The position numbers were made by a program, and so were the translations under genes. A DNA stretch of 64,000 bases, from NCBI RefSeq assembly GCF_007747995.1, contig NZ_CP036276.1:62001-126000 (forward strand), given 5' to 3'. The notes below the pieces were generated by a model. It saw nothing but the letters and a program-made list of their open reading frames with translations. It was not told where the DNA came from and ran no database searches. This DNA comes from Symmachiella dynata. GTDB lineage: Bacteria > Planctomycetota > Planctomycetia > Planctomycetales > Planctomycetaceae. Positions 31,124-52,543 of the stretch are shown here, piece by piece. How positions within the stretch are numbered: position 1 is the first letter of the stretch; every line of letters begins with the position of its first letter.

Positions 31124-31228
31124 GTAGGCCCGGCTGTGCCGGACGATTGCGGGAGCGATTTGAATGAACTCTCGACCATGCTCCGAGAGCATCCGCCGGC
31201 CAACAGCGGCCAATAAAACCGGCCCTAC
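31124..31228. repeat. GTAG-headed palindromic pair (REPIN-like), variant CCCGGC
   Basis: The left unit has head GTAGG, then CCCGGC, loop TGT, GCCGGA and CGAT. The right end runs in inverted sense to CCGGCCCTAC. It shares head, loop and the following CGAT with the copy at 38277, while the stem bases differ and still pair. It lies between the DUF3050 gene and the end of the unknown gene at 31257. GTAG followed by an imperfect palindrome is the known architecture of REP elements. Confidence 0.6.
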
Positions 31229-31256
31229 ACGAATGCGGTTTTAACCAGCCTGCACG

Positions 31257-31769
31257 CTACGAGACACCAGAAATTGGCGGAATCATCAGTGAGAATTCGT
31301 CGTACAGCGAAAAGAATGCATCAATCGCGTCGTTAACTGGTGTAAAGTTTTTCGGGTCTCGCACGCCTCCTACCGATGAGGCTTCCACATCTTCTAAGGT
31401 GACCTCCGGAACGATTGCTGGGATGTCATGCTCCGGACGAATTTCGTCCCGAATGTTCCAAAGCAGGCGGCATATCTCGTCTCGTTGAATTGCTCCTGAC
31501 AACCATAGCTTGCGCAGGTATGAGGCGAAGATTGATGCCCCAAGGTAGTTCGTCGTCATGCCGGGGACATGGCATAGACCGCGCAGCATGTCTTCCGTAG
31601 ATTGTGCGAACGATATGTCGATCATCCATTCGTAGGCGATGTCAGACGACGCGATCAATCCATCGACCCAGGCAGTGACATCCGTTAGCTGGACCAGACG
31701 ACGATTCGAGTCAGAGTACTGAAGCGCTAGTCGATAAAACTCAGCAATATCTCGATTCGTGGGCGTCAT
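31257..31769 (-). CDS. uncharacterised protein, 170 residues
   Basis: The frame is open much further upstream, but that part overlaps the SDR gene; the ATG at 31769 gives a product that starts MTPTNRDIAEFYRLALQ and avoids the overlap. I do not recognise the family. The protein is acidic and mostly helical by appearance (LASDIAYEWMIDISFAQ, FASYLRKLWLSGAIQ), with a C-terminal VNDAIDAFFSLYDEFSL. It has no signal peptide or membrane segment. Position between an SDR and a REPIN-like repeat gives no functional hint. Some small immunity-like proteins have this look, but there is no toxin beside it. Confidence 0.6.
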   Translation of the reverse strand: MTPTNRDIAEFYRLALQYSDSNRRLVQLTDVTAWVDGLIASSDIAYEWMIDISFAQSTEDMLRGLCHVPGMTTNYLGASIFASYLRKLWLSGAIQRDEICRLLWNIRDEIRPEHDIPAIVPEVTLEDVEASSVGGVRDPKNFTPVNDAIDAFFSLYDEFSLMIPPISGVS

Positions 31770-31801
31770 GGTTCGTCTTTCTGTTGAACAGGCACTCCCC
31801 C

Positions 31802-32611
31802 TCACCAGTGCATCACAAACCCGCCGTCGACGTTGATCGTTTGACCGGTCACATGGGCGGCGCGATTGGAGGAGAGGAACACGACCATGTCGGCGATGTC
31901 CTCTGGCGTTTGCCATTGGCCGAGCGGGACCACGGCTTTGATTTTTTCTTCGGCCCAGTCTTCGTAACTGCGCTGTTGATCGGGCGGTTGCTGTTCGTTC
32001 CAGGCTTGCCAGACGCCGCGGTTGAGCGGGGTTTGCACCATGCCAGGGCAGACGCTGTTCACGCGGATGCCGTGCGGCGCCAAATCTTTGGCGGTGCATT
32101 GGGCAAAGTTGATCACAGCTGCCTTGGAAGCACTGTAGGGCGGATCGGTTTGCGAGCCAATTTGTCCGGCGACCGACGAGATAAAAACGATCGTGCCCGA
32201 TTTGCGTTGCTTCATCGGTTCGGCGACGGCGTGGGCGACGTGGACGGTGCCCATGATGTTCACCTCGAGCGTCGCCCGCCAGTCAGACGGCTGTAAGTTC
32301 GTAAATGGAAATCCGAACTTTCCAGACCCGATGGCGGCGCAATGCACCACATGATCGATTGGCCCCAATTCCCGGGCGGTGGCAGCCGCCGCGTCCAGGA
32401 CCTGGGCTTCATCGCAGATGTCGGTCGCAATACCACAGGTGGCGACACCGCATTCGCTCGCGAGATCCGCAGCAGCGGTGGTGACGTTTTTCGCCAGATC
32501 CCAAATGGCCACGCGGGCTCCTTCGGCGGCGAATCCGCGGGCGACGGCCAAACCGATGCCGCTCGCGCCGCCGGTAACGACGGCGACATGATCTTTGATA
32601 TTCAGTTGCAT
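31802..32611 (-). CDS. SDR-family oxidoreductase
   Basis: The 269-residue classical short-chain dehydrogenase has the dinucleotide motif TGGASGIGLAVARG (residues about 13-26), acidic Asp after the second strand (AIWDLAKN, suggesting NAD preference), the NNAG-equivalent region (HCAAIGSG), the catalytic Ser in VFISSVAGQIG and Tyr-x3-Lys in YSASKAA. The C-terminal end GQTINVDGGFVMHW is typical. It reduces or oxidises an alcohol/ketone; substrate unknown, with a 3-oxoacyl reductase or sugar-alcohol role possible. It diverges from the pentahaem gene at 32692. Confidence 0.92.
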   Translation of the reverse strand: MQLNIKDHVAVVTGGASGIGLAVARGFAAEGARVAIWDLAKNVTTAAADLASECGVATCGIATDICDEAQVLDAAAATARELGPIDHVVHCAAIGSGKFGFPFTNLQPSDWRATLEVNIMGTVHVAHAVAEPMKQRKSGTIVFISSVAGQIGSQTDPPYSASKAAVINFAQCTAKDLAPHGIRVNSVCPGMVQTPLNRGVWQAWNEQQPPDQQRSYEDWAEEKIKAVVPLGQWQTPEDIADMVVFLSSNRAAHVTGQTINVDGGFVMHW

Positions 32612-32691
32612 CGAGGATTCTCTTGAATCGGGACGAAAAAATTAACTACGGCTGGGCCAAAGCGGTTGGCTGAGTATAAAATGCTAGAAGC

Positions 32692-35466
32692 ATGACAAGC
32701 AATCGCTCACAATCCGATGACGGCGCACAGGTCGCAAAAAGCCCGCCTTTGACGGCGCTCTGGTGCGCGGTAGCAGTGGTCGTAGCGGCGCTAGGCATTT
32801 ACCTCGCCGGCGTCGCTGCAATGAGCGCCTTTACGGGGATTGCGACGGACAATTTTTTTTGGCTTTGGTCGTTTCTAGCGCATATCGTGCTCGGCGCGGT
32901 CTTCACCGTAGGGGTATTGGTGATTGCGGTGCGGCGCTGTTTGCGTGGGTACCGTGAGCGTGACTGGCGGATGAAGTCCGTCTGGGCGGTGGTGGGCGTG
33001 CTGATTTTGTTTGTATTTGTTTCCGGCGCCGCATTATTTCGCGACGGCCGGGAGCTGCAAATCGCGAAATCGGTGTGGCGTCCTATTTTGTATGCGACGC
33101 ACGTTGTCGTGCCGGTGCTGTTGTTGGGACTTGTGCTGGGGTTTCGCCGTTTAATATTTGGCCAGCGGCGCTGGGGGGTGATTCCATTCGTGGGGGCGAC
33201 AACGCTCGGCGTGGCGGGCTTGGCATTTCTGCACGGGCAGGCACCCACGACGGAAGTCTCCGTGGCGCCCGAAAACGATAAGCTGTCCTATTACCCCGCG
33301 CTCGCTCGTACGGCCTCGGGTGATCCGATCCCGGCAACCGCGTTGATGCGCGATGCGGAATGCAAAACCTGCCATGCGGATGTGCATGCTGATTGGCAGC
33401 AGAGCGCGCATCACTTTAGCTCGTTCAATAATCCGGTCTACTTAGCGGCGGCACTGGAAACGCGGGCCGATGCGATCAAAAAGTATGGCAACGATCAATC
33501 GTTCAACTTTTGTGCCGGCTGCCACGACCCGGTCCCGTTGTTCAGCAATTCGCTCGATGCCGCTTTTGACGATCCACAAAACCCAGTCGCTCAGGCAGGG
33601 CTGACCTGCACGGCGTGCCATGCAATTACGGAAGTCGCACACGGAGCAACAACCACAACCCGAGGGAACGCCGATTACACGATCGCCCAGCCACGGCAAT
33701 ATCCACTCGCCGGCAGCGACAACGAAGTGCTAAGTTGGTTGCATCGGCAATTATTGCTGACCAAACCGGCAATGCACAAACAAACATTCCTCAAACCGGT
33801 GCACAAGACACCGGAGTTCTGCGGGACCTGTCACAAAGTGCACTTGCCCGAGAAACTCAACGACTACAAATTCGTGCGGGGACAGAACCATTACGATTCG
33901 TTTGTGCAAAGCGGCGTTTCAGGGTACGGGGCGCGGAGCTTTTATTACCCGTCGCACGCTGCCGAGAATTGTGCCACCTGCCATATGCCGTCACGGGAAT
34001 CAGACGACCTAGGTGCCACCGATTCCCGTATCCGCAATCACCTCTTCCCCGCCGCTAATACCGGTTTGCCGGCGCTGCGCGGCGCGGAGGACGTTGTCGA
34101 ATTGCATCGCAACGTTCTCGAAGGGGCATTGCGCGTTGATCTGTTTGGAATTCGCGAAGCAGGCCGTATCGACGGGCCGTTGCATGCACCGCTGCGACCG
34201 GAACTTCCTGAATTGAAACCAGGTGCGACGTATTTGTTGGAAGCGGTGATCCGAAATTTGTTGGTGGGACATCACTTCACTCAAGGGACAGCCGACTCGA
34301 ATCAAATCTGGTTGGACATCCGTGTCACCGACGGCGCGGGAAAAGTGATCGGCCGGAGCGGCGCTCTCGACGAGGACCGGCGTGTCGATCCTTGGGCGCA
34401 TTTTATCAATGCCTTTGTCGTCGACCGACAAGGAAATCGCATCAGCCGCCGCAATGCTCAAGACATCTTTGTGCCGCTCTACAACCACCAAATCCCACCA
34501 GGAGCCGCCCAAACGGTGCACTACCGTTTCACACTGCCTGAAGACGTCACAGGGCCGGTGACGGTGGATGTGCGGTTGCGGTACCGGAAGTTTGACCGCG
34601 AGTTAATGGATTTTGTCAGCCGTGATTTGCAGCGGCCTGAATTGGCGCAGTTCGATTTGCCGATTGTCGACATTGCTGAAGACCAAGTCGAATTTGCCAT
34701 TGAGGATTCACCGGCAGAAATCGTCAATCTTCCGGTGGATATCCCCGTCTGGCAACGTTGGAACAATTTTGGAATTGGACTGTTGCTCAACGGACAAGCG
34801 GAATTACGGCAGGCGGAATCGGCATTTCGTGCGGTTCAGCCGCTCGATTTTGGGCAGGGTTCGGTCAATCTGGTCCGCGTGTTACTCAAGGAAGGACGTT
34901 TGGCCGAAGCGGCTGAACTGCTGGCGGGGCTGGATTCGCGCGACGATGCGTCTGTGAATTGGTGGACGCTCGCGTGGCTGAATGGCGTGCTGCAACATCG
35001 GTTGGGAAATTTAGAAGCAGCTGAGGCGCATTTGCGGCGGATTCTCGAAACCAAAGATGCCGAATTGGCGGAGCGTGGGTTTGATTTCAGTCGCGATTAT
35101 GTCGTGCTGAACCAGTTGGGCGAAGTCCTCTTTGATCGCGCCCGGCTTTGCCGAGCCCCGTCGGAGGCCAAAGAACGTGAGAGATTCCTGCGCGCAGCGG
35201 CAGACATTTTCCAGCGCACATTGCAACTCGATACTGAAAACGTTGTCGCACACCACAACCTGTCTCAATTGTACAAGGAGCTGGGGGACGACGAATCGGC
35301 GCTGGCCTATTGGCACAATCACTTAAGATACAAACCGGATGACAGTGCCCGCGGCGAGGCGATTCGAGCCGCGCGCGAAAAATACCCCGCTGCCAACCAT
35401 GCTGCCGGGGATGTGGTGATTTATGATTTACAGCGTCCCGGCGGACCGGGGCGCGATGCGGAGTAA
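32692..35466 (+). CDS. membrane-anchored pentahaem cytochrome c with C-terminal TPR-like repeats
   Basis: The 924-residue product has about five membrane segments in residues 20-185. The next part carries five CxxCH haem sites at C224, C274, C306, C377 and C427 (CKTCH, CAGCH, CTACH, CGTCH, CATCH), spaced as in the cytochrome c554/NrfA-like superfamily. A beta-rich domain covers about residues 490-660. From about 690 to 910 there are helical TPR-like repeats (RQAESAFRAVQPLDFGQGS, EAAELLAGLDS, RTLQLDTENVVAHHNLSQLY). It sits just before a CRTAC1 gene. A periplasmic electron-transfer function is inferred; the acceptor and donor are unknown. Confidence 0.88.
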   Translation: MTSNRSQSDDGAQVAKSPPLTALWCAVAVVVAALGIYLAGVAAMSAFTGIATDNFFWLWSFLAHIVLGAVFTVGVLVIAVRRCLRGYRERDWRMKSVWAVVGVLILFVFVSGAALFRDGRELQIAKSVWRPILYATHVVVPVLLLGLVLGFRRLIFGQRRWGVIPFVGATTLGVAGLAFLHGQAPTTEVSVAPENDKLSYYPALARTASGDPIPATALMRDAECKTCHADVHADWQQSAHHFSSFNNPVYLAAALETRADAIKKYGNDQSFNFCAGCHDPVPLFSNSLDAAFDDPQNPVAQAGLTCTACHAITEVAHGATTTTRGNADYTIAQPRQYPLAGSDNEVLSWLHRQLLLTKPAMHKQTFLKPVHKTPEFCGTCHKVHLPEKLNDYKFVRGQNHYDSFVQSGVSGYGARSFYYPSHAAENCATCHMPSRESDDLGATDSRIRNHLFPAANTGLPALRGAEDVVELHRNVLEGALRVDLFGIREAGRIDGPLHAPLRPELPELKPGATYLLEAVIRNLLVGHHFTQGTADSNQIWLDIRVTDGAGKVIGRSGALDEDRRVDPWAHFINAFVVDRQGNRISRRNAQDIFVPLYNHQIPPGAAQTVHYRFTLPEDVTGPVTVDVRLRYRKFDRELMDFVSRDLQRPELAQFDLPIVDIAEDQVEFAIEDSPAEIVNLPVDIPVWQRWNNFGIGLLLNGQAELRQAESAFRAVQPLDFGQGSVNLVRVLLKEGRLAEAAELLAGLDSRDDASVNWWTLAWLNGVLQHRLGNLEAAEAHLRRILETKDAELAERGFDFSRDYVVLNQLGEVLFDRARLCRAPSEAKERERFLRAAADIFQRTLQLDTENVVAHHNLSQLYKELGDDESALAYWHNHLRYKPDDSARGEAIRAAREKYPAANHAAGDVVIYDLQRPGGPGRDAE

Positions 35467-35497
35467 GGACTCTCAATTCACGGAGACCCTTGATGCC

Positions 35498-37321
35498 ATG
35501 AAAAATGTAAAACTTCAACACTGGCTGATCATGCTGCTGGCGGTCGTGATCGGGCTGGTGATGTTTTTCTGCCTAGCGCCGGTACCGAATTCCAATGACG
35601 TCGACGAAGCTCCACCGCCGCCCCCGCCTGTGGTTCCTGCGGAACCAGCAGCAACGTCGGACCAAACCCGCGCGCCGCCTCCAACGGCGCCGGTCCTGCC
35701 GGAGATTCCCTTCACCGACATCACGGAGGAAGCGGGTATTGACTTTGTGCACCAAAACGGTGCCGCTGGCGAAATGTTGTTGCCCGAAACCATGGGCAGC
35801 GGCGCGGCGTTTTTCGACTATGACAACGACGGCGATCAAGACTTGTTGTTGGTGAACGCCACCGCATGGCCGCACGCGCCCTCGCAATCCTCCACGGCGA
35901 CTTCCGTTCTCTATCAAAACGACGGCCACGGGCATTTTGAAGATGTGTCCGCTGCCGTTGGGTTGAACCTGAACTGTTATGGAACGGGCGTCGCCGTTGG
36001 GGATTTCGATAACGATGGTTGGCGGGACCTGTTTATCGCCGCCGTCGGTCGCGATCATCTGTTTCGCAACAACGGTGGAGAGTTTGAGGAAGTCACGACC
36101 AAAGCAGGTGTCGCCGGCGAGGAAACCGCCTACAGCAGCAGTTGCGGTTGGTGGGACTACGACAATGACGGCGACCTCGATTTGTTTGTCTGCCATTACA
36201 TTGATTGGTCGCGCGCGTCCGATTTAGCGCAGAATTTCTCGCGAACCGGCGGCATGCGGGACTATGGGCCGCCGCTCGATTTTGGAGGGACCTTTTCGAA
36301 GTTATTTCGTAACGATGGAGCGGGGCAATTTTCCGACGTCACCGCTGCCGCCGGAATCGAAGTCCGATCTTCCACGGGACGTCCGTTGGGAAAGTCGCTG
36401 GGGCTGATTCCCGTGGATGTGGACAGCGATGGTTGGTTGGATCTGATCGTGGCCAACGATACGGTGCGCAACTTTTTGTTTCACAATCAACAAGACGGTA
36501 CGTTTTTGGAGATCGGGGTGCGGGCGGGGATTGCCTTTGACAATTCCGGCAATGCGCGGGGCGGCATGGGGATCGATGCCGGTTTCTTGCGAAATGACAC
36601 GTCGCTGGCGGTCACGATTGGGGACTTTGCCAACGAAGCGTCGGCGCTGTTTGTGGCGCGGCGACCGCTGTTGTTTGCGGACGAAGCCACGATTAGCGGA
36701 CTCGGCGCAGCAACGCTGCTGGATTTGACGTTCGGCACGTTTTATTTTGATGCCGACCTCGACGGACGGCTCGACATCCTGGCTGCCAACGGGCATATCA
36801 GTTCGCAAATCGAACGCGTGCAAACCAGCCAAACACACGCCCAAGCTCCGCAGTTGTTTTGGAATGCCGGTCCAGGCGCGCCGCTGGAGTTCGTACCGCT
36901 CACAGCCAAGCAGTGCAGCGAAAATTTTGTCAAACCAATCGTCGGCCGTGGCGCCGCTTATGCCGACATCGATGGCGACGGCGATCAGGACGTACTCATG
37001 ACCGCTACCGGTGCACGCCCACGCTTGTTACGCAACGATCAACAGACCGGTCATCATTGGCTGCGGTTGAAGCTAGTCGGCACGAGAACCAATCGTGATG
37101 CGATTGGCGCCCGGGTGGATGTGCATGTGGGGGATACGACATTTACTAAGCAGGTGATGCCGACGCGGAGTTATCTATCGCAGATGGAATTGCCGGTCAC
37201 GTTTGGACTCGGCGCGCGGGCCACCATCGATAAAGTCAACGTGCATTGGCCGGGCGGCGTCGAACAGGTCGTTGACGATCCGCAAGTCGATGCACTGAAT
37301 GTCGTGACACAACCGCGGTGA
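35498..37321 (+). CDS. CRTAC1/ASPIC-UnbV family protein with VCBS/FG-GAP repeats
   Basis: The frame is open from 35423, inside the previous gene; the ATG at 35498 starts MKNVKLQHWLIMLLAVVIGL, a good N-terminal membrane anchor, with GGAG 12 bases upstream. The 607-residue product has a proline-rich linker (residues about 30-70), then repeated calcium-type FG-GAP/VCBS units (DYDNDGDQDLLL, DFDNDGWRDLFIA, DYDNDGDLDLFV, DVDSDGWLDLIVAND, DADLDGRLDILAANG, DIDGDGDQDVLMTA) that fold as a beta-propeller. The C-terminal domain is ASPIC/UnbV (LKLVGTRTNRDAIGARV). It is transcribed with the pentahaem gene, 31 bases apart, so the two probably work together outside the cytoplasm. Confidence 0.92.
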   Translation: MKNVKLQHWLIMLLAVVIGLVMFFCLAPVPNSNDVDEAPPPPPPVVPAEPAATSDQTRAPPPTAPVLPEIPFTDITEEAGIDFVHQNGAAGEMLLPETMGSGAAFFDYDNDGDQDLLLVNATAWPHAPSQSSTATSVLYQNDGHGHFEDVSAAVGLNLNCYGTGVAVGDFDNDGWRDLFIAAVGRDHLFRNNGGEFEEVTTKAGVAGEETAYSSSCGWWDYDNDGDLDLFVCHYIDWSRASDLAQNFSRTGGMRDYGPPLDFGGTFSKLFRNDGAGQFSDVTAAAGIEVRSSTGRPLGKSLGLIPVDVDSDGWLDLIVANDTVRNFLFHNQQDGTFLEIGVRAGIAFDNSGNARGGMGIDAGFLRNDTSLAVTIGDFANEASALFVARRPLLFADEATISGLGAATLLDLTFGTFYFDADLDGRLDILAANGHISSQIERVQTSQTHAQAPQLFWNAGPGAPLEFVPLTAKQCSENFVKPIVGRGAAYADIDGDGDQDVLMTATGARPRLLRNDQQTGHHWLRLKLVGTRTNRDAIGARVDVHVGDTTFTKQVMPTRSYLSQMELPVTFGLGARATIDKVNVHWPGGVEQVVDDPQVDALNVVTQPR

Positions 37322-37391
37322 TGTGAGGACCCCAAAGGGGGAGTCCACCCTGGGTAAATCTGGGAGCATTCTCCGTGGTGGGCGGATTGAA

Positions 37392-37490
37392 ATACCCCTT
37401 CAGGGTATGATCCTGATGGTCCCGTCGTGAACCTGGGGTGCGCTCACTCCGTTCACGACCCCAGGCTATGGTGAAAAACGCCTTCGGCGT
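37392..37490. repeat. hairpin cluster in the convergent gap 37322-37610
   Basis: Perfect stems are ATACCC/GGGTAT (37392-37408), TCGTGAAC/GTTCACGA (37425-37432 with 37451-37458), ACCTGGGG/CCCCAGG (37431-37438 with 37459-37465) and ACGCC/GGCGT (37478-37490). The second and third share bases, so they cannot form at the same time. The first and last would serve as bidirectional ends for the convergent genes, but no T-run follows. Confidence 0.5.
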
Positions 37491-37546
37491 AACAAGCTGG
37501 GTCCGTATAATCATTGTTACATTTCAGTTGATAGGAATCGCAGCGA

Positions 37547-37603
37547 CCAACGGGAGCGACCTATACAAGTCGAGCGGTAGCTCGCACGAAGCGGCTGTGC
37601 CGC
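37547..37603. repeat. family B outer element (copy 3)
   Basis: This stretch, from AGCGACCAACGGGAGCG to GCGGCTGTGCCGC, is a near copy of 43588-43650 beside egtD, including CGAGCGGTAGCTCGCAC. It lies just before the stop of the gene at 37611. It shows the element can exist without its inverted partner. Confidence 0.55.
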
Positions 37604-37610
37604 GTGGAGG

Positions 37611-38237: not shown

Positions 38238-38276
38238 CGTGAAACTCTCCTTGTGACTAAAACGTACACCGATTCC

Positions 38277-38351
38277 GTAGGTCATGCTGTGCATGACGAT
38301 GCTTGGAGAAGCGTTGCTCTGTCGCGATTCGTCATGCACAGCATGACCTAC
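38277..38351. repeat. GTAG-headed palindromic pair (REPIN-like), copy A1
   Basis: The left unit is head GTAGG then TCATGC, loop TGT, GCATGA, CGA; the right unit is the inverted form ending CATGACCTAC. Each half is itself a hairpin and the halves are inverted repeats of each other. The element lies between the GTG start of the MobA-like gene and the stop of the WYL gene, both on the minus strand. Confidence 0.75.
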
Positions 38352-38372
38352 GAGCTGAAATCGACGCCAAGC

Positions 38373-39380: not shown

Positions 39381-39713
39381 AGGCAAAGTCTTTTTGAAAA
39401 TTCGAGCAAAATTTCCGCGGTCTCCCGCTAACGTAGACGGGAGGGTGTTTGAAGAGATCGATCCATAGTCATGGCCCGCCCTCAATTCATAACCCATTTT
39501 CGATCGCTTGTGTTATAGTAAACCCCAGCAACCGCAATGGGTGTGCGAGATTGAGGACTTGCTGGGTGCGACTACAAAAAATAATAACGAGTCCTACCCA
39601 GAATGCCGCTCCTTGATGAGACAAGGCGTTTTGTTCGCCGCAGGCGTTACACATCGCACCCCAAGGGGAGGCTGTTTGACAAGTTGTGGCGCCAATAACA
39701 CGGGGGACGATCA

Positions 39714-39896: not shown

Positions 39897-40109
39897 GCGA
39901 CGGCCCAACCGACGTTGGTATTGGACAACGGGTTCGCTGTACGATAATGGTAGATCCTGTCCAGCAGAGACCACTTGGTGGATGTTTCGCTTTGGTGGTT
40001 AGCGTAAAGCTGCCTGCAGTGAAACCGTCGTCCGATTAGACAACGGATCAGTATCGCACAAACAGAATAGAAGAACACAGTCACACGGCGGGTACGGGGA
40101 GCCTAGGCC

Positions 40110-41609: not shown

Positions 41610-43366
<1,757 letters not shown>

Positions 43367-43367
<1 letters not shown>

Positions 43368-43650
43368 CGGCTCAGCCGCTTGGTGCGAGCTTCCGCTCGA
43401 GGGGGTTGGGGCGCTCCCGGTGGTCGCTGCGCTTTGTTCAGGTAGCGGCCCGGGAGGGCGAAGCTCCTGCTGAGCCGCATCGGTAGACTAGGCGTGGTTT
43501 GCAAAATCATTGGACGAATGAGACATTCCTATAGCGCGTGGTTCGGACGGAGCCTCGCCCTCCCAGAGACCATATTCGCCAAAGCATAGCGACCACCGGG
43601 AGCGGCCCAGACAAAACCGAGCGGAAGCTCGCACCAAGCGGCTGAGCCGC
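43367..43650. repeat. nested inverted repeat filling the aspS-egtD gap
   Basis: Outer arms are 43367-43400 (GCGGCTCAGCCGCTTGGTGC, GAGCTTCCGCTCG) and 43618-43650 (its complement). Next pair: 43413-43436 (GCTCCCGGTGGTCGCTGCG) with 43581-43604. Inner pair: 43452-43478 (GGGAGGGCGAAGCTCC... GAGCCGC) with 43544-43564. The structure starts on the last base of the aspS stop and ends four bases before the egtD stop, so it occupies the whole gap. It could end transcription in both directions or be a composite mobile repeat. Confidence 0.75.
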
Positions 43651-43653
43651 CCA

Positions 43654-44616: not shown

Positions 44617-44834
44617 TGAGGGGTCGCTTTCCGTAGAAAGTTCATAAAGATGTGGGTTGTTCCGCTTGCTACAGACATAATCACCCTACCGGATTCGTCG
44701 GGAAATGAAAACCGGCAGCGAATTATAGACATTTTTTCTCGACAAACACCCCGAGGGTCGTCAGGATGAGCAATTTTTTACCGACTCGCTTTGAACCTAC
44801 TCAGATTAGCAAAAATGAGGGAGAGGCGAACAAG

Positions 44835-46097
44835 ATGGACTACGCAAGCTTAAGGGACGCCTACCTTGCCGTTCGCCGCCAAAGTGAGGCGATCGTCGCG
44901 CAGCTCGAACCGGAAGATTGCGTGGTGCAATCCATGCCTGATGTCAGCCCGACACGTTGGCATTTGGCACATGTCACCTGGTTTTTCGAAACATTTGTCC
45001 TCAAACCGTTTTTGCCCAACTACGAATCAACGCATCCGGCGTTCGAGTATCTGTTCAATTCTTACTACAACACAGTAGGCCGACAATTCCCCCGCGCACA
45101 GCGCGGGTTGCTGTCACGCCCGACGGTTGCGGAAGTTCTGGACTACCGCCGGCACGTGGATCAGCACATGCAGCGACTGCTGGAGGATCCGCCGCACGAT
45201 TTTGTCGAGCCGGCGCGGGTGATTGAAATTGGGCTCAATCACGAACAACAACATCAGGAATTGATGCTGACTGATATCAAGCATGTCTTTTCCTGCAATC
45301 CGCTCTATCCTGCCTTTCAAAATCGCGCTAGCGTCGAGGCTCAGACCACGCGGCAATTGGGCTGGCAACGGTTTGATGAAGGGCTTTACGAAATCGGCAA
45401 GACGGGAGACGGATTTGCCTTCGATAACGAATCGCCGCGACATCGCGTGTTTGTCGAGTCGTTTGAATTGGCGGATCGACTGGTGACATGCGGCGAGTTT
45501 CGTCAGTTCATCGAAGATGGCGGATACCAGCGGCCGGAGTTTTGGCTGTCCGCCGGATGGGCGACGGTACAGGAAAACCATGCGCTTGGTCCCGGGCCTG
45601 ATTCCTGGCCGTCTGCCATGTATTGGCAAAAACGCGATGAGGATTGGTATCACTTCACACTCGACGGGATGCGGCCGATTGATCCGGCGGAACCGATGTG
45701 CCATGTCAGTTATTTCGAGGCGGACGCGTACGCCCGCTGGGCCGGAGCTCGTTTGCCGACCGAAGCGGAATGGGAAATCGCCGCTGCGGACCAGCCGCTT
45801 ACCGGGAATTTTATTGAAAGTGGTGCGCTACACCCCCTGCCGGTCGCCCAGGACAGTCATTCCCGGCAAACCTTCGGCGATGTTTGGGAATGGACGGCGA
45901 GCCAGTACACCGCTTATCCGGGCTACGCCGCCGCCGACGGTGCGTTGGGTGAATACAACGGCAAGTTTATGTGCAATCAGTTTGTCTTGCGCGGTGGTTC
46001 GTGCGTAACACCCGCATCCCACATCCGCCTAACCTACCGCAACTTCTTCCCCCCCTCCGCCCGCTGGCAGTTTTCAGGTATCCGTTTAGCGAAGTAA
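44835..46097 (+). CDS. egtB: hercynine oxygenase (ergothioneine sulfoxide synthase)
   Basis: Two starts are possible: 44766 and 44835. I prefer 44835 because GAGAGG lies about 8 bases before it and the DinB-like domain begins there (MDYASLRDAYLAVRRQ); the longer form would have 443 residues instead of 420. The iron-binding motifs are HLAHVTWFFE and HEQQHQE (HxxxHxE); the C-terminal FGE-sulfatase-type domain follows (RLPTEAEWEIAAA, DVWEWTASQYTAYPGY, NQFVLRGGSCVTP). It joins hercynine to a sulfur donor with O2. No egtA or egtC is visible, which is usual where the enzyme uses cysteine directly. Confidence 0.94.
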   Translation: MDYASLRDAYLAVRRQSEAIVAQLEPEDCVVQSMPDVSPTRWHLAHVTWFFETFVLKPFLPNYESTHPAFEYLFNSYYNTVGRQFPRAQRGLLSRPTVAEVLDYRRHVDQHMQRLLEDPPHDFVEPARVIEIGLNHEQQHQELMLTDIKHVFSCNPLYPAFQNRASVEAQTTRQLGWQRFDEGLYEIGKTGDGFAFDNESPRHRVFVESFELADRLVTCGEFRQFIEDGGYQRPEFWLSAGWATVQENHALGPGPDSWPSAMYWQKRDEDWYHFTLDGMRPIDPAEPMCHVSYFEADAYARWAGARLPTEAEWEIAAADQPLTGNFIESGALHPLPVAQDSHSRQTFGDVWEWTASQYTAYPGYAAADGALGEYNGKFMCNQFVLRGGSCVTPASHIRLTYRNFFPPSARWQFSGIRLAK

Positions 46098-46134
46098 AAT
46101 TCGCAAACCGAATGCATTGTGGCTTCCACCCCAT

Positions 46135-46210
46135 GTAGGGCAGGCTCCTGCCTGCCGCATTTACCAAGGCACGTCCAACGTATCATCCGGCAGGCGGGAG
46201 CCTGCCCTAC
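46135..46210. repeat. GTAG-headed palindromic pair (REPIN-like), variant GCAGG
   Basis: The left unit is GTAGG then GCAGGCTCCTGCCTGC; the right unit is the inverse and ends GCCTGCCCTAC. It lies 32 bases before copy A2 in the 306-base gap 46098-46403, so two such pairs stand in tandem. Confidence 0.65.
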
Positions 46211-46242
46211 GCTCTCTCGTTTGGTTGTGGCGCGACAAATTC

Positions 46243-46317
46243 GTAGGTCATGCTGTGCATGACGAATCGCAACGGATTTCCATTTACTCAAGCATCGTCG
46301 TGCACAGCATGACCTAC
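46243..46317. repeat. GTAG-headed palindromic pair (REPIN-like), copy A2, hit by IS630
   Basis: The left unit matches copy A1 (GTAGG, TCATGC, TGT, GCATGA). The right unit runs to CATGACCTA at 46316, where the IS630 element starts; the base after the other TA, at 47573, restores the expected C. One base of the right stem differs from copy A1 (GTCGTGC). Confidence 0.7.
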
Positions 46318-46403
46318 TGGTCCGTCTATTCTAAAATGTCCATTATCTGCTATAAGTGTCATTCGTTGACTTTGAATTTCATACTGAACTCTAGGAGGCA
46401 AGG

Positions 46404-46982
46404 ATGCCAGCTTCGAATCGGAAACGGGAAGTTTGTTTAAGTGAGACCGAACGTCGCGAAATGGAGCGTTTAGTTCGTAGTGGATCTGTACCCGCTGCCC
46501 AATTGCGGCGTGCGCGGATCTTGTTGATGGCTGATGAAGATCGACGCGGAGAAGACCGGAATCCAGATTGGTATATCGCCCAGACGGTCGGCTTGTCCGA
46601 AAAACAAGTAGGACGTGTACGGCAGAAATTTGTCGAAGATGGTTTGCTGCCAACCTTGAAACGCAAGCAGCGGACCACACCGCCGGTGTCCCCGAAGCTG
46701 GACGGCGCCGCAGAAGCCAAATTGATCACGCTGTGTTGCAGCGATCCGCCGGAAGGACACCAGCGTTGGACTTTGAAATTGCTGGCAGACGAATTGGGGC
46801 GGTTGCAGGTTGTCACTTCCGTCTGCCCAGAGACCGTGCGCCGTTGTCTGAAAAAAATCGCCTCAAGCCCTGGCAAAGTAAACGCTTTTGTATCCCAGAA
46901 CGGGACCGCCCGCGATTCGTGGCCCATCTGGAAAAAGTTCTTGACGTCTACTGCGAAACGTACAACGAAACGCATCCGTTGA
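46404..46982 (+). CDS. IS630 transposase, first frame (orfA, HTH part)
   Basis: The 192-residue frame starts at an ATG with AGGAGG 8 bases upstream. It holds the IS630-type helix-turn-helix (AQLRRARILLMADE, then IAQTVGLSEKQVGRVRQKFVEDG) and the linker to the catalytic part. The match to the family ends at CLKK; the rest of the frame is out of register with the catalytic domain. A run of seven A at 46851-46857 lies at that point, and a shift of -1 there joins this frame to orfB. Confidence 0.8.
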   Translation: MPASNRKREVCLSETERREMERLVRSGSVPAAQLRRARILLMADEDRRGEDRNPDWYIAQTVGLSEKQVGRVRQKFVEDGLLPTLKRKQRTTPPVSPKLDGAAEAKLITLCCSDPPEGHQRWTLKLLADELGRLQVVTSVCPETVRRCLKKIASSPGKVNAFVSQNGTARDSWPIWKKFLTSTAKRTTKRIR

Positions 46983-47548
46983 TTTGCATGGATGAAGCAT
47001 CCAAGCAAATCGTCAGCGATGTCAATCCGGCTTTGCCGATGAGCCCCGGCTGCGTGCGACGGGAAGATCATCATTACCAGCGTCAAGGGGTGCGCGCCTT
47101 GTTTATGTTTTACAATCCTCTGGCCGGTTGGCGACGCGTCAGCAGCCGTGCGAGCCGGACACGCATCGACTGGGGCGAAGAAATCGCGCAGCTGTTGGAA
47201 GAGGATTATCCCCATGCCCAGCGCGTCACGCTGGTGTGCGACAATCTGAACACGCACGACATTGCAAGTCTGTACTGTGCCTTCGATGCAGAGCGAGCGC
47301 ATCGCCTGGCGCGTCGTTTGCGAATCGTGCACACGCCGGTCAATGGCAGTTGGCTGAACATGGCCGAGATGGAGCTGAGCGTCTTGACGCGTCAATGCAT
47401 CGGCCGTCGCTTCGACAGCGCAAAACAGATGACGGCAGAGATCGACGCTTGGCAGCGAAGACGCAACCGAATCGCCACACCAGCACGCTGGCGTTTCAAA
47501 ACACGAGCAGCAAGAATTAAACTGCAACACCTTTACCCACATACCTGA
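46856..47548 (+). CDS. IS630 transposase, second frame (orfB, DDE domain)
   Basis: Read in the -1 frame from the A7 run, this part continues the transposase: KNRLKPWQSKRFCIPE. The catalytic triad is Asp in ICMDEASKQ, Asp in VCDNLNTHD, and Glu in WLNMAEMELS. The frame is open to 47548 and ends just inside the right terminal repeat. There is no own start with a ribosome binding site near the join, so a fused product by frameshift or transcriptional slippage is the likely active form. Confidence 0.8.
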   Translation, partial: NRLKPWQSKRFCIPERDRPRFVAHLEKVLDVYCETYNETHPLICMDEASKQIVSDVNPALPMSPGCVRREDHHYQRQGVRALFMFYNPLAGWRRVSSRASRTRIDWGEEIAQLLEEDYPHAQRVTLVCDNLNTHDIASLYCAFDAERAHRLARRLRIVHTPVNGSWLNMAEMELSVLTRQCIGRRFDSAKQMTAEIDAWQRRRNRIATPARWRFKTRAARIKLQHLYPHT

Positions 47549-47584
47549 CATTTTAGGATAGACGGACCACTACGTCCGTTGCGT

Positions 47585-50500
47585 TTAAGGTGACGTTGGT
47601 GTGCGCTGGCGTTTGGTTTTGGCGAGTTCGCGGAAATAGCGGCGAATGATTTTGGCGTAATCGCCGCCCGGTCGATTCAGCGCCGACTCAAGGATTTCGG
47701 TTCGCAATTTTCCGGGGAGTTCTCCCCAATGCCGACCGGAGAGTTTTTCGAAATCCTCACGAAGTTCCGCCAACTCATCGGCCGGAGCATTACTGCCGCT
47801 ACCGCCTGCCGTGTTTCCTGGAGAACCGGCTTGGCCGGTCTGTTGCGACTGTTGGCCTTGGCTGCGGCGCGATTGTTGTTGGCCTTGTCCCGGTTGCAGA
47901 CTTTCGGTCGCCTGTGACAGCGAATCGGCCGCCTGTTGCATTTTTTCCGAAGCACCTTGCTGTGCTGACTCTCCATTGGCTGGTTGGTCTTGAGAGGATT
48001 GTTGTTTCTGATCTTGCTGCATCTGCTGTTGTGCCTGTTGCATTTGCTGCATGGCTTGGGTGATGTCCTCAGCAGGCTGCGCGGGCATTTCGCTTGGGTC
48101 GGCTCGTTGTTCGCCGGCAAGTTGTTGAATCGCTTGCGCGACATCGTTCAACAGACTCGCAGCCTGATGTCCTTGTTGGCCAGCTTCTTTGGATTGATTT
48201 TCCTGAAGCGACTCTGTTGCCTGCTGCATCTGTTTGTGAGCCTGGGCGGTCTCCTGCTCCGCTTGGCGAGTCTGTTCCCCTTGCGGTTTGAGGTTGAGCG
48301 GCTCTGCTGCTAAATCTTGGGCGGACTCCTGCAACTGACGTTGCAACTCTTCTGTCTGTGCGGCCAAGTTCTTCTGCCCGAACTTTTGGGCTGCCTGTCG
48401 TCGCTGAGGGTCGTCGGCCATCTCGGCAAATTGCTGCGACAATTCTTGTTGCCGTTGCCGCAAAGCTTTGGCCTGGGCATTCAATGACTCCTGATCAGTT
48501 GTCATCTCTTGGGCCATGTCGGCTGCTTGTTGAGCGGCTTTGGCGGCTTGTGGTGTTTGGCCGTTTGCCGCTGCTGTGGCGGCGCGATGCGCTTGTTGTG
48601 CCATGTTGAGCGCCTGTTGAGCTAGCTTCGATTGTGGTCCGAGTTGGCTGGCTGCTTGCCGCGCGAAATCGACAACTTCACGTGCCAATTCTCGCTGCGC
48701 GGTGATCAGTTTGAGGTTCTGCTCCGCGGCTTCGTCGGTCGCATCGGTTTCCGCAACAGGGTCTTGTTCGATTGTGGTTGCTAATTCCTCTTGCGCATCG
48801 GCAATGCCTTGTGCTGCGCGGCCTAAGCGACCGAGTTCCCTCAACCGCGCTTTGCGGGCGGCTTCGAGGATTTCGGGATGTTGTTCAACAAGGTCCTTCA
48901 ATTGTGCGGACAGTTCAGCGGCTTGTTTTTCCGCTTGTCGTTGTTGCTCGGCCAAGGTTTGCAATTCTTGCTGTTGCTGGGCCGATTCAGGTTGGGCGGC
49001 CAGTTCCGCTTGCCGTCGCTGCATTGCGGCGAGTTGTTGCGATAACTCTTGTGCCTGCGCTGCCATGCGGTTCAGATCCAACAGATCACGCTCAAGCGCT
49101 GCTAAACGTTCAAACCGCCGTCGCAATTCCGCCAACGCATCGTCGGCTTCATCCAATTGGGTGACCGATGATTGCAGGGCTTCTGTTCGTTGCTCGCCGG
49201 TTGAGGAGTTCGCCCGCGTGATATCGTGGCCCGAGGATTGCAGGTATTCTTGAGCGATCTTGCGTGCGGTCGGCGCCAGGCTCGAGAGGACCGGCCGCTT
49301 GTCGAATGTGTCGGCCACATGCTCTAAGCGTTGGGCGAGTTGCCGTTGTTGTGTGGCGAGCGTTCGCAAGACCTCTGGGGTGTCCGTCTCTTTCAGTAAG
49401 GCGACGCGCGCTTGTTGTTGCCGCGTTTCGTTGTGGATCACAGCCAATTCCTCCGCCAACCGTTGGTGTTCGCGAGCAAGTGATTGCTCTTTGGCCGAAG
49501 GGGCGTCGGGTTGGATCATCACGGTATGCGGTTCGGAGGTCACCCACTGCGGTCCGGGCTCCGGTCGGTTATCAGCGGCGCGGAGTCGGTAGGTGAATTG
49601 TGTGCCCGGCGATTGAAGCTCAGCGGGGAGTTCGACCTCGAATGTAGAGGAGACTTCTGTAGCCCCCAAATTCGCAGCGGGGGCATTGATAAGTTGCGAT
49701 CCTCCTTGCGGGAATTCGATTTCCAGTTGCAGCCGGCTGACCGCGAAATCGTCGCGCACAGTTGCCGTGACTCTCAGTGGAGCACCGGGAGCGATCGAGA
49801 TCGGCAGATCATCGTGCAATCCGATGAACTCAGGAGGGTGGTCGCGACGGATGCGCAAGCTGCGTGCGACGGTCGGCATGTTGTGGAATCCATGAGGATC
49901 GACGAGCAAAAAGTCAAACGGACCTCCCTGGTCGACGGTGAACTCCAAGCTCGCCGACCGGCCATCGGCGACCATTGTGAATGTGTGACGGACGATGTCT
50001 GGGGGTATCTTCTCGATGTCGTTGGCGGCAAAGACTTTCGCCAAATCGTGACGATTGCCTTGTAACCATTCCGCGGTGACCACTTTGTTGGGGAAGGTCA
50101 ATTCCCCGCGCAGGCGGCTGTGTTCAAAGACCGTGATCTCGCCGACCGCGCCGTCGTGCGATTCTGCCGGCAGTTTTGTGTATTCCGGTGGTTGGACATG
50201 CAATATGCAGGTGCCCATTTGCGGAGGATCGACCACGCGGACGATGTAGTTTCGTGAGCGTGCCTTGCCAGCGGCGAATGCGAATCGGAAGTCGTCTTGT
50301 ACGTGGGGAATCGTCACCAGAAACGCCTCAGCGGTGGGACTCCACTTGACCGGCCGCACAACGCCGGCTTGCGGTCCTGCGGTGAATTCCAGTTGCGCCT
50401 CGCGTGGCAACGGATCAATTCCCTGCCGGGAATGCGGAACGGCAAGCAGCGTCAGGTCCTGTCCTCGTGCAGCGACGCGGTTTCCACCAGGGACATCGAA

Positions 50501-51127
50501 ATAGATATCGCCCGCACGCTCATGATTTCCCCACGGAACCAAAAACCGCGTGAGCATCAGCCGATAACTGTCCGGGGCAAACAGTGCCGGTGCGGCCAAA
50601 AGCACCACTGCAGCCAGGCCGAGCAGTCCAAGACGCACGCTCTGCTTTGCGGGGGCGGCGGAATCGAAGTCGATCGGTTCGGTGGCCTGCAACGTCTCGC
50701 GGGTGAGGTGATTGAGCATCAACGCTGAACCGCGCCAACTCGTGGGGGTTTCAGGATGCGTGAGTTCCACCAGCGAGGAAAGCCGTTCGCCCAGGGCGGG
50801 GTGGGCTGCTTCGACAACTGCCGCCAAATTCACACCGGCATAACGCTTCAGCAATGGGCGAATCACGAACCAGCTCGCCACGGCAATCGCCACAATTCCG
50901 GTGGCGCCCAGCCAGATAATGCGTAGGGCTGTGGGCACGTCGAACAATAAATCGGCGGCCAGTCCGACAGCGACCATCGCGCCGGTGACAGCCAGCAACA
51001 GTCCGATCCCGCGCAGCAATGCCAACCGCCGCAACCGCCGAGCCAATCCGCGCAGCTTCGCCGCTACGCCGTCGGGAAGCGACGTCAACGTTGCCGGAGG
51101 TTTAGGGGATTGAATGACAGTGGACAT
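47585..51127 (-). CDS. DUF4175-like membrane coiled-coil protein
   Basis: The ATG at 51127 is chosen because the longer frame (to 51253) runs into the PQQ gene; no strong ribosome binding site is seen. The 1180-residue product has three hydrophobic segments in the first 220 residues (RGIGLLLAVTGAMVAVGL, LGATGIVAIAVASWFVI, LGLLGLAAVVLLAAPALF), then beta-rich domains (about 230-540), and a long Gln/Ala/Glu-rich coiled coil (about 560-1100, with QMQQAQQQMQQDQKQQ). The layout resembles DUF4175 proteins of unknown function. It lies 28 bases after the PQQ lipoprotein gene, so they form an operon. A scaffold or envelope role is a guess. Confidence 0.85.
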   Translation of the reverse strand: MSTVIQSPKPPATLTSLPDGVAAKLRGLARRLRRLALLRGIGLLLAVTGAMVAVGLAADLLFDVPTALRIIWLGATGIVAIAVASWFVIRPLLKRYAGVNLAAVVEAAHPALGERLSSLVELTHPETPTSWRGSALMLNHLTRETLQATEPIDFDSAAPAKQSVRLGLLGLAAVVLLAAPALFAPDSYRLMLTRFLVPWGNHERAGDIYFDVPGGNRVAARGQDLTLLAVPHSRQGIDPLPREAQLEFTAGPQAGVVRPVKWSPTAEAFLVTIPHVQDDFRFAFAAGKARSRNYIVRVVDPPQMGTCILHVQPPEYTKLPAESHDGAVGEITVFEHSRLRGELTFPNKVVTAEWLQGNRHDLAKVFAANDIEKIPPDIVRHTFTMVADGRSASLEFTVDQGGPFDFLLVDPHGFHNMPTVARSLRIRRDHPPEFIGLHDDLPISIAPGAPLRVTATVRDDFAVSRLQLEIEFPQGGSQLINAPAANLGATEVSSTFEVELPAELQSPGTQFTYRLRAADNRPEPGPQWVTSEPHTVMIQPDAPSAKEQSLAREHQRLAEELAVIHNETRQQQARVALLKETDTPEVLRTLATQQRQLAQRLEHVADTFDKRPVLSSLAPTARKIAQEYLQSSGHDITRANSSTGEQRTEALQSSVTQLDEADDALAELRRRFERLAALERDLLDLNRMAAQAQELSQQLAAMQRRQAELAAQPESAQQQQELQTLAEQQRQAEKQAAELSAQLKDLVEQHPEILEAARKARLRELGRLGRAAQGIADAQEELATTIEQDPVAETDATDEAAEQNLKLITAQRELAREVVDFARQAASQLGPQSKLAQQALNMAQQAHRAATAAANGQTPQAAKAAQQAADMAQEMTTDQESLNAQAKALRQRQQELSQQFAEMADDPQRRQAAQKFGQKNLAAQTEELQRQLQESAQDLAAEPLNLKPQGEQTRQAEQETAQAHKQMQQATESLQENQSKEAGQQGHQAASLLNDVAQAIQQLAGEQRADPSEMPAQPAEDITQAMQQMQQAQQQMQQDQKQQSSQDQPANGESAQQGASEKMQQAADSLSQATESLQPGQGQQQSRRSQGQQSQQTGQAGSPGNTAGGSGSNAPADELAELREDFEKLSGRHWGELPGKLRTEILESALNRPGGDYAKIIRRYFRELAKTKRQRTPTSP

Positions 51128-51155
51128 GGTGAGGACAATCGTCGGGGGACCTATG

Positions 51156-52445
51156 CTATTCGCCGAGGCAATACAACATCTCTCGCCGCTCGCCATCCAC
51201 GGTTTCGACGACACGCATGTAAATACGGTTGCCGCAGATGGCCGGTGTGGCATAGGTTTCGTCGCCGAGTTGGTTTTTGGAGACGTTTTCTAGTCCCTCG
51301 GGGCTGACCGTCACGACGTAGGTCGTTGCGTCTTCGGTCGTGGCATACAATCGGCCGCCCGCCAACACGGGGGTCGAAGTGAACGGTCCGCCGATACGTT
51401 TTTTCCAGAGTTCTTCGCCACTGTCGCTCTTCCAGCAATAGACAATTCCTTTATCGGATACTGCATACAGATGGCCATCGATGACTAGCATCGAAGGGAC
51501 ATAGACGCGGGTCTTGTTTTCCCAAGCGATCTCACCCGAACCGTCGCCGCGGATGGCAGAAACATGGTTTTTGGGGTAGCCGCCGCTGGAAAAGACGAGG
51601 TTTCCATCGGTGGGAGTCGACGTCACACATTCGGTCGTCGCCCCTTCGACTTCCCAATTCTGCTTGCCGGTCAGCGGGTCATAGCTTGAGACAAGGTCGC
51701 AGCCGGTGAAGATCACTTGGTCTTTGCCGGCGACGTTGAGAATGATTGGCGACGCATAATTCGGCTCACTCGGCCGTTTGTGTTTCCAGGTAAGCTCACC
51801 GGACTCGCGATCGAAAGCGGCAATCGCCCCGCCCCCTTTGTTGTCGGCCGAGACGATCACTACCGAACCGTAAATCGCCGGCGACGACCCATAACCCTGA
51901 TGCACGACATAATCAGTGACCTTTTTTTGCCACAACTTTTTCCCGTCGATGGTCAGTGCCGTGGTATAGACGGCGTCGTTGTTGAGAAAATTGATGAACA
52001 ACCGCTCACCGTCGCAAGCAACAGTCGAGGATGCTTGCGTCGATTTCTTGTTGCCCTTATCGGTCAGGCCGCCGGTGTGGACGTCGGTTTTCCAAAGCTG
52101 ATTGCCCGTCTCGCGATCGAAACAGATCACCGACTGGGTTTGTTGTTCTTCATCAGCAGTCGTGATAAAGACGCGGTCACCCACCACGGTCGGCGAACTG
52201 TGTCCACGGCCCGGAATGGGCGCTTTCCAGATCACGTTTTCGTCTTTGCTCCAGGTGGTCGGCGGCGATTGGCCGTCTGGGGCGATGCCGTTACGCTGAA
52301 ATCCTCGCCACCAAGGCCAATCCGCTTCGGAAACAGAAATCTTGGCCGGCGTGGCGACAGCTGTGCCCGATTCCTGCTCCGCGCAACCGGTCGACTCGAC
52401 AACGAACAACAACGCCACAGCCAAAACCATATAAACGCGGGGCAT
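51156..52445 (-). CDS. PQQ-binding-like beta-propeller lipoprotein
   Basis: The 429-residue product has a lipoprotein signal (residues 1-20, ending ESTGC, with Cys21 as the lipidated residue). The propeller blades carry the PQQ-like repeat pattern: IWKAPIPGRGHSSPTVVGDRVF, SVICFDRETGNQLWKTD, AIAAFDRESGELTWKHKR, YDPLTGKQNWEVEG, YCWKSDSGEELWKKR. Such proteins include BamB-like scaffolds and quinoprotein look-alikes; no catalytic residues can be assigned. It is followed by the DUF4175-like gene on the same strand. Confidence 0.92.
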   Translation of the reverse strand: MPRVYMVLAVALLFVVESTGCAEQESGTAVATPAKISVSEADWPWWRGFQRNGIAPDGQSPPTTWSKDENVIWKAPIPGRGHSSPTVVGDRVFITTADEEQQTQSVICFDRETGNQLWKTDVHTGGLTDKGNKKSTQASSTVACDGERLFINFLNNDAVYTTALTIDGKKLWQKKVTDYVVHQGYGSSPAIYGSVVIVSADNKGGGAIAAFDRESGELTWKHKRPSEPNYASPIILNVAGKDQVIFTGCDLVSSYDPLTGKQNWEVEGATTECVTSTPTDGNLVFSSGGYPKNHVSAIRGDGSGEIAWENKTRVYVPSMLVIDGHLYAVSDKGIVYCWKSDSGEELWKKRIGGPFTSTPVLAGGRLYATTEDATTYVVTVSPEGLENVSKNQLGDETYATPAICGNRIYMRVVETVDGERREMLYCLGE

Positions 52446-52468
52446 ATCGACTCAGCTTTCTGTATTCT

Positions 52469-52543
52469 GTAGGCCATGCGGTGCATGACGGTTCTGTATT
52501 TGGTGAATCATGTTGGAGCTTCGTCATGCACAGCATGACCTAC
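52469..52543. repeat. GTAG-headed palindromic pair (REPIN-like), copy A3
   Basis: The left unit is GTAGG, CCATGC, then GGT, GCATGA; the right unit is CATGACCTAC at the end. The last four bases overlap the sulfatase stop codon: the TAG of that gene (52540-52542) is part of the GTAG head on the complementary strand. It lies between the PQQ lipoprotein start and the sulfatase end. Confidence 0.7.

What the first reader, a model, noticed from the sequence alone, without database searches (positions are those of the whole stretch)
31124..52543. A GTAG-headed palindrome family (REPIN-like) at five intergenic sites with covarying stems
Sites 31124-31228, 38277-38351, 46135-46210, 46243-46317 and 52469-52543 share the plan GTAGG + imperfect hairpin ... 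inverted hairpin + CCTAC. Two variants keep the same loop region (GCTGTGC) and following ACGA while stem bases change in pairs (TCAT/ATGA versus CCCG/CGGG-like), which is covariation. A GTAG tetranucleotide before an imperfect palindrome is the established signature of REP elements moved by RAYT (Y1/HUH) transposases, and inverted doublets are called REPINs. No RAYT gene is in the window, so these would be non-autonomous copies. REP/RAYT systems are best described in proteobacteria.
Basis: partly seen in the sequence, partly recalled or inferred. Interest (0 to 1): 0.7.

Follow-up and report, generated by a model that had tools for sequence, protein, structure and literature searches.

The report
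REPIN repeats with their own transposase
Short hairpin repeats scattered between the genes of this bacterium are REPINs, tiny mobile DNA passengers, and the enzyme that probably moves them was found elsewhere in the genome with the same repeats at both its ends, so this is a sound but largely expected case.

Summary
The five sites exist as stated and are REP/REPIN elements, but of three families. The main one (GTAG-GTCATGC-TGT-GCATGAC; window 38277, 46243, 52469) has 73 half-sites in the 7.77 Mb genome, reversed-pattern control 0; 27 of 29 inverted doublets in the DNA held are 74-76 bp. Site 46135 belongs to a GGCAGGC family with its own RAYT. Site 31124 is a decayed heterodimer whose RAYT was found in two sister genomes, not here. 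On a tree of selected RAYTs, REP stems follow the protein (23 changes, shuffled minimum 33). By-products: three identical IS630-type elements all sit in the CTAC end of TCATGC REPINs, and REPs coincide with indel boundaries against a sister genome. Several REP families with RAYTs were already reported from R. baltica. New member of a known kind.

The parts
38277..38351 (.). TCATGC-family REPIN, 75 bp, two intact GTAG-headed 7-bp hairpins in inverted orientation
   Evidence: absent from the syntenic place in sister genome G001
46243..46317 (.). TCATGC-family REPIN, 75 bp, left half intact, right half with one stem mismatch; an IS630-type element sits in its right CTAC end
52469..52543 (.). TCATGC-family REPIN, 75 bp, left half decayed, right half intact; also present (decayed) in G001
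46135..46210 (.). GGCAGGC-family REPIN, 76 bp, 4-nt loop (TCCY); cognate RAYT at genome 4660140-4660715; shared with G001
31124..31228 (.). decayed heterodimer REPIN of the GTCCGG/GGCCGG family, an orphan here; RAYTs flanked by this type are in G001 and G002; shared with G001
46318..47569 (+). IS630-type insertion sequence, 1252 bp, one of three identical copies, each abutting a TCATGC REPIN; CTAC at both ends
46404..46982 (+). first ORF of the IS630-type transposase (HTH_32)
   Evidence: domain scan done on the identical copy in L270
46568..47548 (+). second, overlapping ORF of the IS630-type transposase; the DDE_3 match was made on its downstream part (window 46988-47548) in the identical copy in L270

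Best explanation
The elements are REPINs: non-autonomous pairs of inverted REP hairpins. The TCATGC REPINs are most likely recognised through the GTAG foot plus the 7-bp hairpin by the RAYT encoded at genome 167445-168029, an HUH/tyrosine single-strand endonuclease, and were dispersed by it through single-stranded DNA, as modelled for TnpA-REP proteins. The GGCAGGC REPINs have their own RAYT in the same way; the 31124 site is a remnant of a third family. Shown here: repeat number, doublet architecture, RAYT identity, RAYT flanking by its own REP, coinheritance of stem and RAYT. Inferred: recognition, cleavage and dispersal.
For: 73 TCATGC half-sites at up to 3 of 23 mismatches, reversed-pattern control 0. 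In the DNA held, 29 inverted doublets at up to 4 of 21 mismatches: 23 are 75 bp, 2 are 74, 2 are 76, 1 is 70, 1 is 25, with varied spacers. RAYT ORF between REPINs 167366-167440 and 168032-168106, the second starting 2 bp after the stop codon. The protein scores 177 bits against a cut-off of 80 for NF047646 REP_Tyr_transpos; it keeps H60, H62, W112-Q113 and Y133 of the alignment; the profile of 13 RAYTs matches solved TnpA-REP 4er8 at 1.3e-52. Second RAYT (53% identical) flanked by GGCAGGC REPs. 15 of 16 RAYT loci from 9 genomes have GTAG hairpins within about 1.5 kb, 10 of them on both sides. 55 of 80 loci from a scan of named genomes have at least one GTAG or GTGG hairpin, a few of them far from the gene and probably chance; GTAG heads 185 of 3969 hairpins where 10.6 are expected. 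A Roseiconus nitratireducens RAYT is also flanked by TCATGC REPs. Stem labels on the RAYT tree: 23 changes for 55 rows, minimum of 500 shuffles 33; in the 20-row clade 9, minimum 12.
Against: No movement was seen directly. 2 of the 5 window sites are absent from sister G001, but none leaves a clean empty site. REPs occur without a detected matching RAYT: G018 has 37 half-sites of the pattern and no NF047646 match (88% complete); G031 (74 half-sites) and G010 (19) have RAYTs, but of the loci held (9 of 11 and 8 of 9) none carried the matching hairpin; G001 has 35 half-sites and two NF047646 RAYTs, neither of TCATGC type. In this genome a GTCAGGC-TCCC family of 21 half-sites has no detected RAYT. 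25 of 80 scanned RAYT loci had no hairpin by this scan. The tree rows were hand-picked (58 of 96 loci). PF01797 scores the TCATGC RAYT below its cut-off (20.7 against 23 bits). No clustering of REPINs around their RAYT was shown.
Confidence: 0.95

Rival explanations
1. The hairpins are transcription terminators or mRNA-stabilising hairpins kept by selection at gene ends; the resemblance to REPs is secondary.
For: Sites lie at or near gene edges; REPs elsewhere have been given such side roles (start of the abstract of PMC3733652).
Against: GTAG head, 74-76 bp doublets with variable spacers, near-identical copies at dozens of loci, and the same repeat around a RAYT gene are not explained.
Confidence: 0.03
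2. They are MITEs of the IS630-type element found next to one of them (IS630-derived MITEs are known, passage of PMC2817692).
For: Three IS630-type copies abut TCATGC REPINs and REPIN ends contain TA.
Against: The IS ends (TGGTCCGTCTAT...) do not resemble REP ends; the three REPINs have different spacers, so the IS entered pre-existing REPINs; REPINs occur in G001 and G002, where no such IS end was found.
Confidence: 0.01
3. The REPs are cassette boundaries of an integron-like or composite system in which the mobile unit is REP plus gene rather than the REPIN.
For: At 1350689-1351309 a REP-gene-REP direct repeat faces a single REP without the gene in G001; 13 of 15 REP elements in a 349 kb syntenic stretch touch an indel of 60 bp or more, random intergenic placement mean 5.8, max 12 of 1000.
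Against: 29 elements are inverted doublets; recombination or slippage between the 27-bp direct repeats explains the one clean case as well; a REPIN insertion is itself an indel, so the count is partly circular.
Confidence: 0.05

Closest known systems
GTAG REP families and REPtrons surveyed by Di Nocera et al. 2013 (PMC3733652; passages and section 16 read, figures not held)
   Same: GTAG repeats as head-head dimers, family-specific REPtrons, presence in the PVC superphylum; the text names R. baltica as a host of several REP families and of many tyrosine transposase genes with flanking repeats
   Different: whether the TCATGC family is among its families could not be checked: the strings CATGC and GTCATG do not occur in the text held, but the families are drawn in a figure that is not held
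REPINs and RAYTs of Pseudomonas fluorescens (Bertels and Rainey 2011, PMC3116915, passages read)
   Same: inverted REP doublets as the repeated unit, several families in one genome, each next to its own RAYT
   Different: other host; far fewer copies (47 TCATGC elements after merging, against 1,422 16-mers in SBW25)
TnpA-REP of Stenotrophomonas and Marinomonas, group 3, with perfect-palindrome REPs (PMC8266576, passages read)
   Same: GTAG foot, short perfect stem, short loop, HUH plus Tyr protein
   Different: stem sequences differ; biochemistry not done here; no group-labelled reference proteins were aligned, so the group assignment is by resemblance
TnpA-Y1 phylogenomics (Quentin et al. 2018, PMC6006769, passages read)
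   Same: each tnpA-REP is associated with its own REP family; one genome may carry several
   Different: in the passages read Planctomycetes are named for class 3 proteins with atypical CnGA-footed structures
Insertion sequences that target REPs (Tobes and Pareja 2006, PMC1525189, passages read)
   Same: every copy of one IS inserted at the same point of a REP
   Different: families listed there are IS3, IS110, IS4, IS256, IS5; the element here is IS630-type

Membership tests
REP/REPIN (GTAG type) | GTAG foot immediately 5' of a palindrome | tested here: met
REP/REPIN (GTAG type) | many dispersed, mostly extragenic copies, above chance | tested here: met
   73 and 102 half-sites, controls 0; extragenic position tested only for the five window sites: 3 clear, 2 overlap ORF edges by 18 and 4 nt
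REP/REPIN (GTAG type) | inverted doublets of conserved length able to form one long hairpin | tested here: met
   27 of 29 doublets are 74-76 bp; folding z -5.5 to -9.6 for 4 of 5 window sites, -1.9 for 31124
REP/REPIN (GTAG type) | a RAYT gene in the genome flanked by the same REP | tested here: met
   TCATGC; GGCAGGC; for the 31124 family met only in sister genomes G001, G002
RAYT (TnpA-REP) | Y1 HUH protein with RAYT-specific profile score, HUH and catalytic Tyr motifs | tested here: met
   NF047646 177 bits, cut-off 80; H60, H62, Y133; PDB 4er8 1.3e-52. PF01797 alone is below cut-off
RAYT (TnpA-REP) | coinheritance of RAYT and REP sequence | tested here: met
   rows hand-picked (58 of 96 loci, 55 labelled)
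RAYT group 3 / subclass 2.5 | placement with group-labelled reference proteins | not tested
   no labelled references were aligned; resemblance rests on the short perfect stems
Mobile REPIN | insertion polymorphism with clean empty sites | tested here: inconclusive
   2 of 5 window sites absent from G001 but no exact empty site
Mobile REPIN | single-strand cleavage and transfer by the RAYT | not testable with these tools
   needs biochemistry

The most novel reading that the evidence does not exclude
REPs in this lineage are not only passengers: two same-orientation REPs can act as the ends of a composite unit, so that a whole gene between them is gained or lost, by the RAYT or by recombination at the REPs. 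The clean case is REP-gene-REP at genome 1350689-1351309, where sister G001 has one REP joining the two outer flanks, and REPs touch indels against G001 more often than random intergenic placement.
Probability: 0.12. Interest if true: 0.65.

Novelty: new member of a known kind. Interest (0 to 1): 0.3.

Why it matters
It gives a tidy, testable set of cognate RAYT-REP pairs, many from planctomycetes: a frame GTAGG-NNNN-GCTNTGC-NNNN-C recurs in many of them, with variable paired positions that follow the protein tree, which is what is needed to work out how RAYTs read their stems. It also shows one genuine RAYT that the general Pfam model for Y1 transposases scores below its cut-off, so a search with that model alone would have called these REPs orphans.

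Tried and rejected
Orphan hypothesis: the PF01797 search gave 8 hits, none flanked by TCATGC within a few hundred bases; the nearest was about 1 kb from a REPIN with another gene between. The RAYT appeared on reading the DNA between two neighbouring REPINs and was confirmed by a search with that protein.

Local hopping: TCATGC elements look denser in the first 40% of the genome, but mean distance to the RAYT is not significant after merging clusters (uniform P 0.06, rotation P 0.27), and the GGCAGGC family shows nothing. Rejected.

Covariation within the family: 10 of 73 TCATGC half-sites vary in the stem, 0 of 10 on both sides of a pair. The clear paired change is between families: of the 100 rows listed (102 in all), 21 have T at position 6 and all 21 have the matching A at position 21; this may be one inherited event.

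Conservation of IS630 targeting: 9 related IS ends in three other genomes, seen on one side each, do not abut TCATGC REPs, so REP targeting is not general for that IS group.

Clean empty sites: looked for at 13 places in the first syntenic stretch and with 64 loci against 400 kb more of G001 (6 loci had hits, at 4 places). L022 aligned over its full length, so its REPIN is probably shared; the one clean difference was the REP-gene-REP case.

Rows dropped: the tree has 58 of 96 RAYT loci: 13 of 16 (three short or partial matches left out) and 45 of 80. Of the 55 of those 80 with any hairpin, ten were left out: five with only distant or unlike hairpins (L207, L219, L220, L239, L255), two whose match length is not a multiple of three (L196, L217), and three (L232, L244, L258) by hand without a fixed rule. 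In one search two of 17 elements outside the alignment chain were dropped.

Full report
What was checked. A relaxed pattern finds 8 matches in the window, seven of them in these sites, with a shuffled mean of 0.75. In the window 38 places have a perfect 7-bp stem with a 3-4 nt loop; 6 are headed by GTAG and no other head occurs more than twice. GTAG makes up 213 of 127,950 positions, so about 0.06 would be expected.

Three families, not one. The sites at 38277, 46243 and 52469 belong to one family, GTAG-GTCATGC-TGT-GCATGAC. The site at 46135 belongs to another, GTAG-GGCAGGC-TCCY-GCCTGCC. The site at 31124 is a damaged pair whose left half resembles GTAG-GTCCGGC-TGT-GCCGGAC and whose right half resembles GTAG-GGCCGGT...; the same heterodimer surrounds RAYTs in the two sister genomes G001 and G002. 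That pattern has 14 half-sites in this genome, 16 in G001 and 38 in G002 at up to 3 of 21 mismatches, against reversed controls of 1, 0 and 1.

Whole genome. The window is bases 62001-126000 of one 7,767,809-base contig. TCATGC has 73 half-sites at up to 3 of 23 mismatches, control 0; merged within 200 bp these are 47 elements. In the DNA held there are 29 inverted doublets, 27 of them 74-76 bp long with varied spacers, plus 23 single half-sites, of which two are really of the CCGG family. GGCAGGC has 102 half-sites, control 0; of the 100 rows listed 21 are a GTCAGGC variant with both stem sides changed, a separate family for which no RAYT was detected here.

The transposase. PF01797 gave eight Y1 genes in this genome, none cleanly tied to TCATGC. 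Reading the DNA between neighbouring REPINs showed an ORF at genome 167445-168029 (L014 914-1498), between REPINs 167366-167440 and 168032-168106. REPIN DNA starts two bases after its stop codon. It scores 20.7 bits with PF01797 (cut-off 23) but 177 bits with NCBIfam REP_Tyr_transpos (cut-off 80). The RAYT profile matches the solved TnpA-REP 4er8 at 1.3e-52. HUH and tyrosine positions are kept. A second RAYT, 53% identical, is flanked by GGCAGGC REPs. Two further RAYTs (L004, L005) are flanked by a GGTGG-headed family with 28 matches, at least two of which are the same palindrome read on the other strand.

Relatives. In 59 genomes (own included), 18 have the TCATGC pattern at up to 2 mismatches, most rows shown being the doubly changed TCAGGC/GCCTGA form (the list is cut). 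A RAYT search of 18 genomes gave 16 matches in 9 of them at E 1e-15 or better; 15 of 16 loci carry GTAG hairpins, 10 of them on both sides, with stems that differ between RAYTs. A scan of named genomes returned 80 RAYT loci, the best of a larger capped set; 55 of 80 have a GTAG or GTGG hairpin, and GTAG is the commonest head (185 against 10.6 expected; TAGG, 176, is largely the same GTAGG read one base on). One, from Roseiconus nitratireducens (Pirellulaceae), is flanked by TCATGC REPs. A tree of 58 hand-picked RAYTs groups rows by REP stem; 55 labelled rows with 17 stems need 23 changes, while 500 shuffles need at least 33; the 20-row clade needs 9 against at least 12. In the tree the TCATGC RAYTs of this genome and of Roseiconus lie in that clade but are not resolved as sisters.

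Comparison with a sister genome. G001 is 91-92% identical over the aligned parts of the window. 46135, 52469 and 31124 are shared; 38277 and 46243 are absent there, with untidy surrounding changes. In about 380 kb of synteny the TCATGC pattern is found 19 times in G000 and 2 times in G001. The RAYT segment is also missing from the matching place in G001. G001 nevertheless has 35 half-sites of the pattern, with only two NF047646 RAYTs, neither of TCATGC type, so REPs may outlive their RAYT. This cannot show direction, and no exact empty site was found.

By-product 1, an IS in REPIN ends. Right of the REPIN at 46243 lies a 1252-bp element with HTH_32 and DDE_3 domains, which I call IS630-type from those domains (recalled). 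The genome has six matching ends, that is three copies, identical over 1252 of 1252 bases; each has the same end against the CTAC of a different TCATGC REPIN, with CTAC also at the far end. By rough estimate TCATGC heads are about 0.3% of GTAG sites in the genome, so three of three is unlikely by chance. Related IS ends in three other genomes do not abut TCATGC REPs. Tobes and Pareja list IS3, IS110, IS4, IS256 and IS5 as REP-targeting families (PMC1525189, passages); searches listed no IS630 case (listings and abstract openings seen).

By-product 2, REPs at indel boundaries. At 1350689-1351309 a 195-aa gene without a Pfam match lies between two same-orientation REPs; G001 has one REP joining the outer flanks. 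In a syntenic 349 kb, 13 of 15 REP elements touch an indel of 60 bp or more (random intergenic placement mean 5.8, max 12 of 1000), and 9 of 45 indels have a REP at a breakpoint (random mean 2.7, max 8). Part of this is circular, since a REPIN insertion is itself such an indel, and homologous recombination between repeats would do the same.

Literature. GTAG REPs in the PVC superphylum and repeat-specific REPtrons are in print, with R. baltica named as host of several families and many transposase genes with flanking repeats (PMC3733652, passages and section 16). RAYT-REP coevolution was proposed in 2010 (PMC2817692, passages), and group 3 RAYTs read perfect-palindrome REPs (PMC8266576, passages). 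Searches listed no paper on this TCATGC family, but only listings were seen for most, figures are not held, and most subscription papers are missing. Verdict: a solid new member of a known kind.

Noticed in passing
window 46318-47569; genome 1771629-1772880 and 2177097-2178348: Three identical 1252-bp IS630-type elements, each inserted at the CTAC end of a TCATGC REPIN.
   Followed up: partly
L021 883-1523 (genome 1350689-1351329): REP-gene-REP direct repeat with a 195-aa gene without a Pfam match; sister G001 has a single REP and no gene.
   Followed up: partly
L004 and L005 flanks; 28 matches in the genome: A GGTGG-headed palindrome family (CCCCGAAAGATTCTTTCGGGG) flanks two other RAYTs and includes doubly compensated variants.
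   Followed up: partly
L006 about 1300-1340 and 1945-1985: A further RAYT is flanked by GTGG/GTAG-headed CGATTGC...GCAATCG hairpins; copies were not counted.
   Followed up: no
L264-L267 (genome 468979-469841, 899559-900974, 5677652-5678638, 4409462-4410444): Orphan GTCAGGC-TCCC REPs lie 0.5-1 kb apart with small genes between them, one with a DUF7336 domain.
   Followed up: partly
window 43452-43564 and L005 about 1276-1300: A GGGAGGGCGAAGCTCCTGCTGAGCC inverted repeat recurs and may be another REP family.
   Followed up: no
window 3392-3473 and L007 1149-1190: A GGTGCCACTG...CAGTG hairpin in the window resembles one beside the RAYT of L007.
   Followed up: no
L114 (G017) RAYT: The catalytic tyrosine position reads E (FDEVHFNP), so this copy may be inactive although still flanked by REPs.
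   Followed up: no
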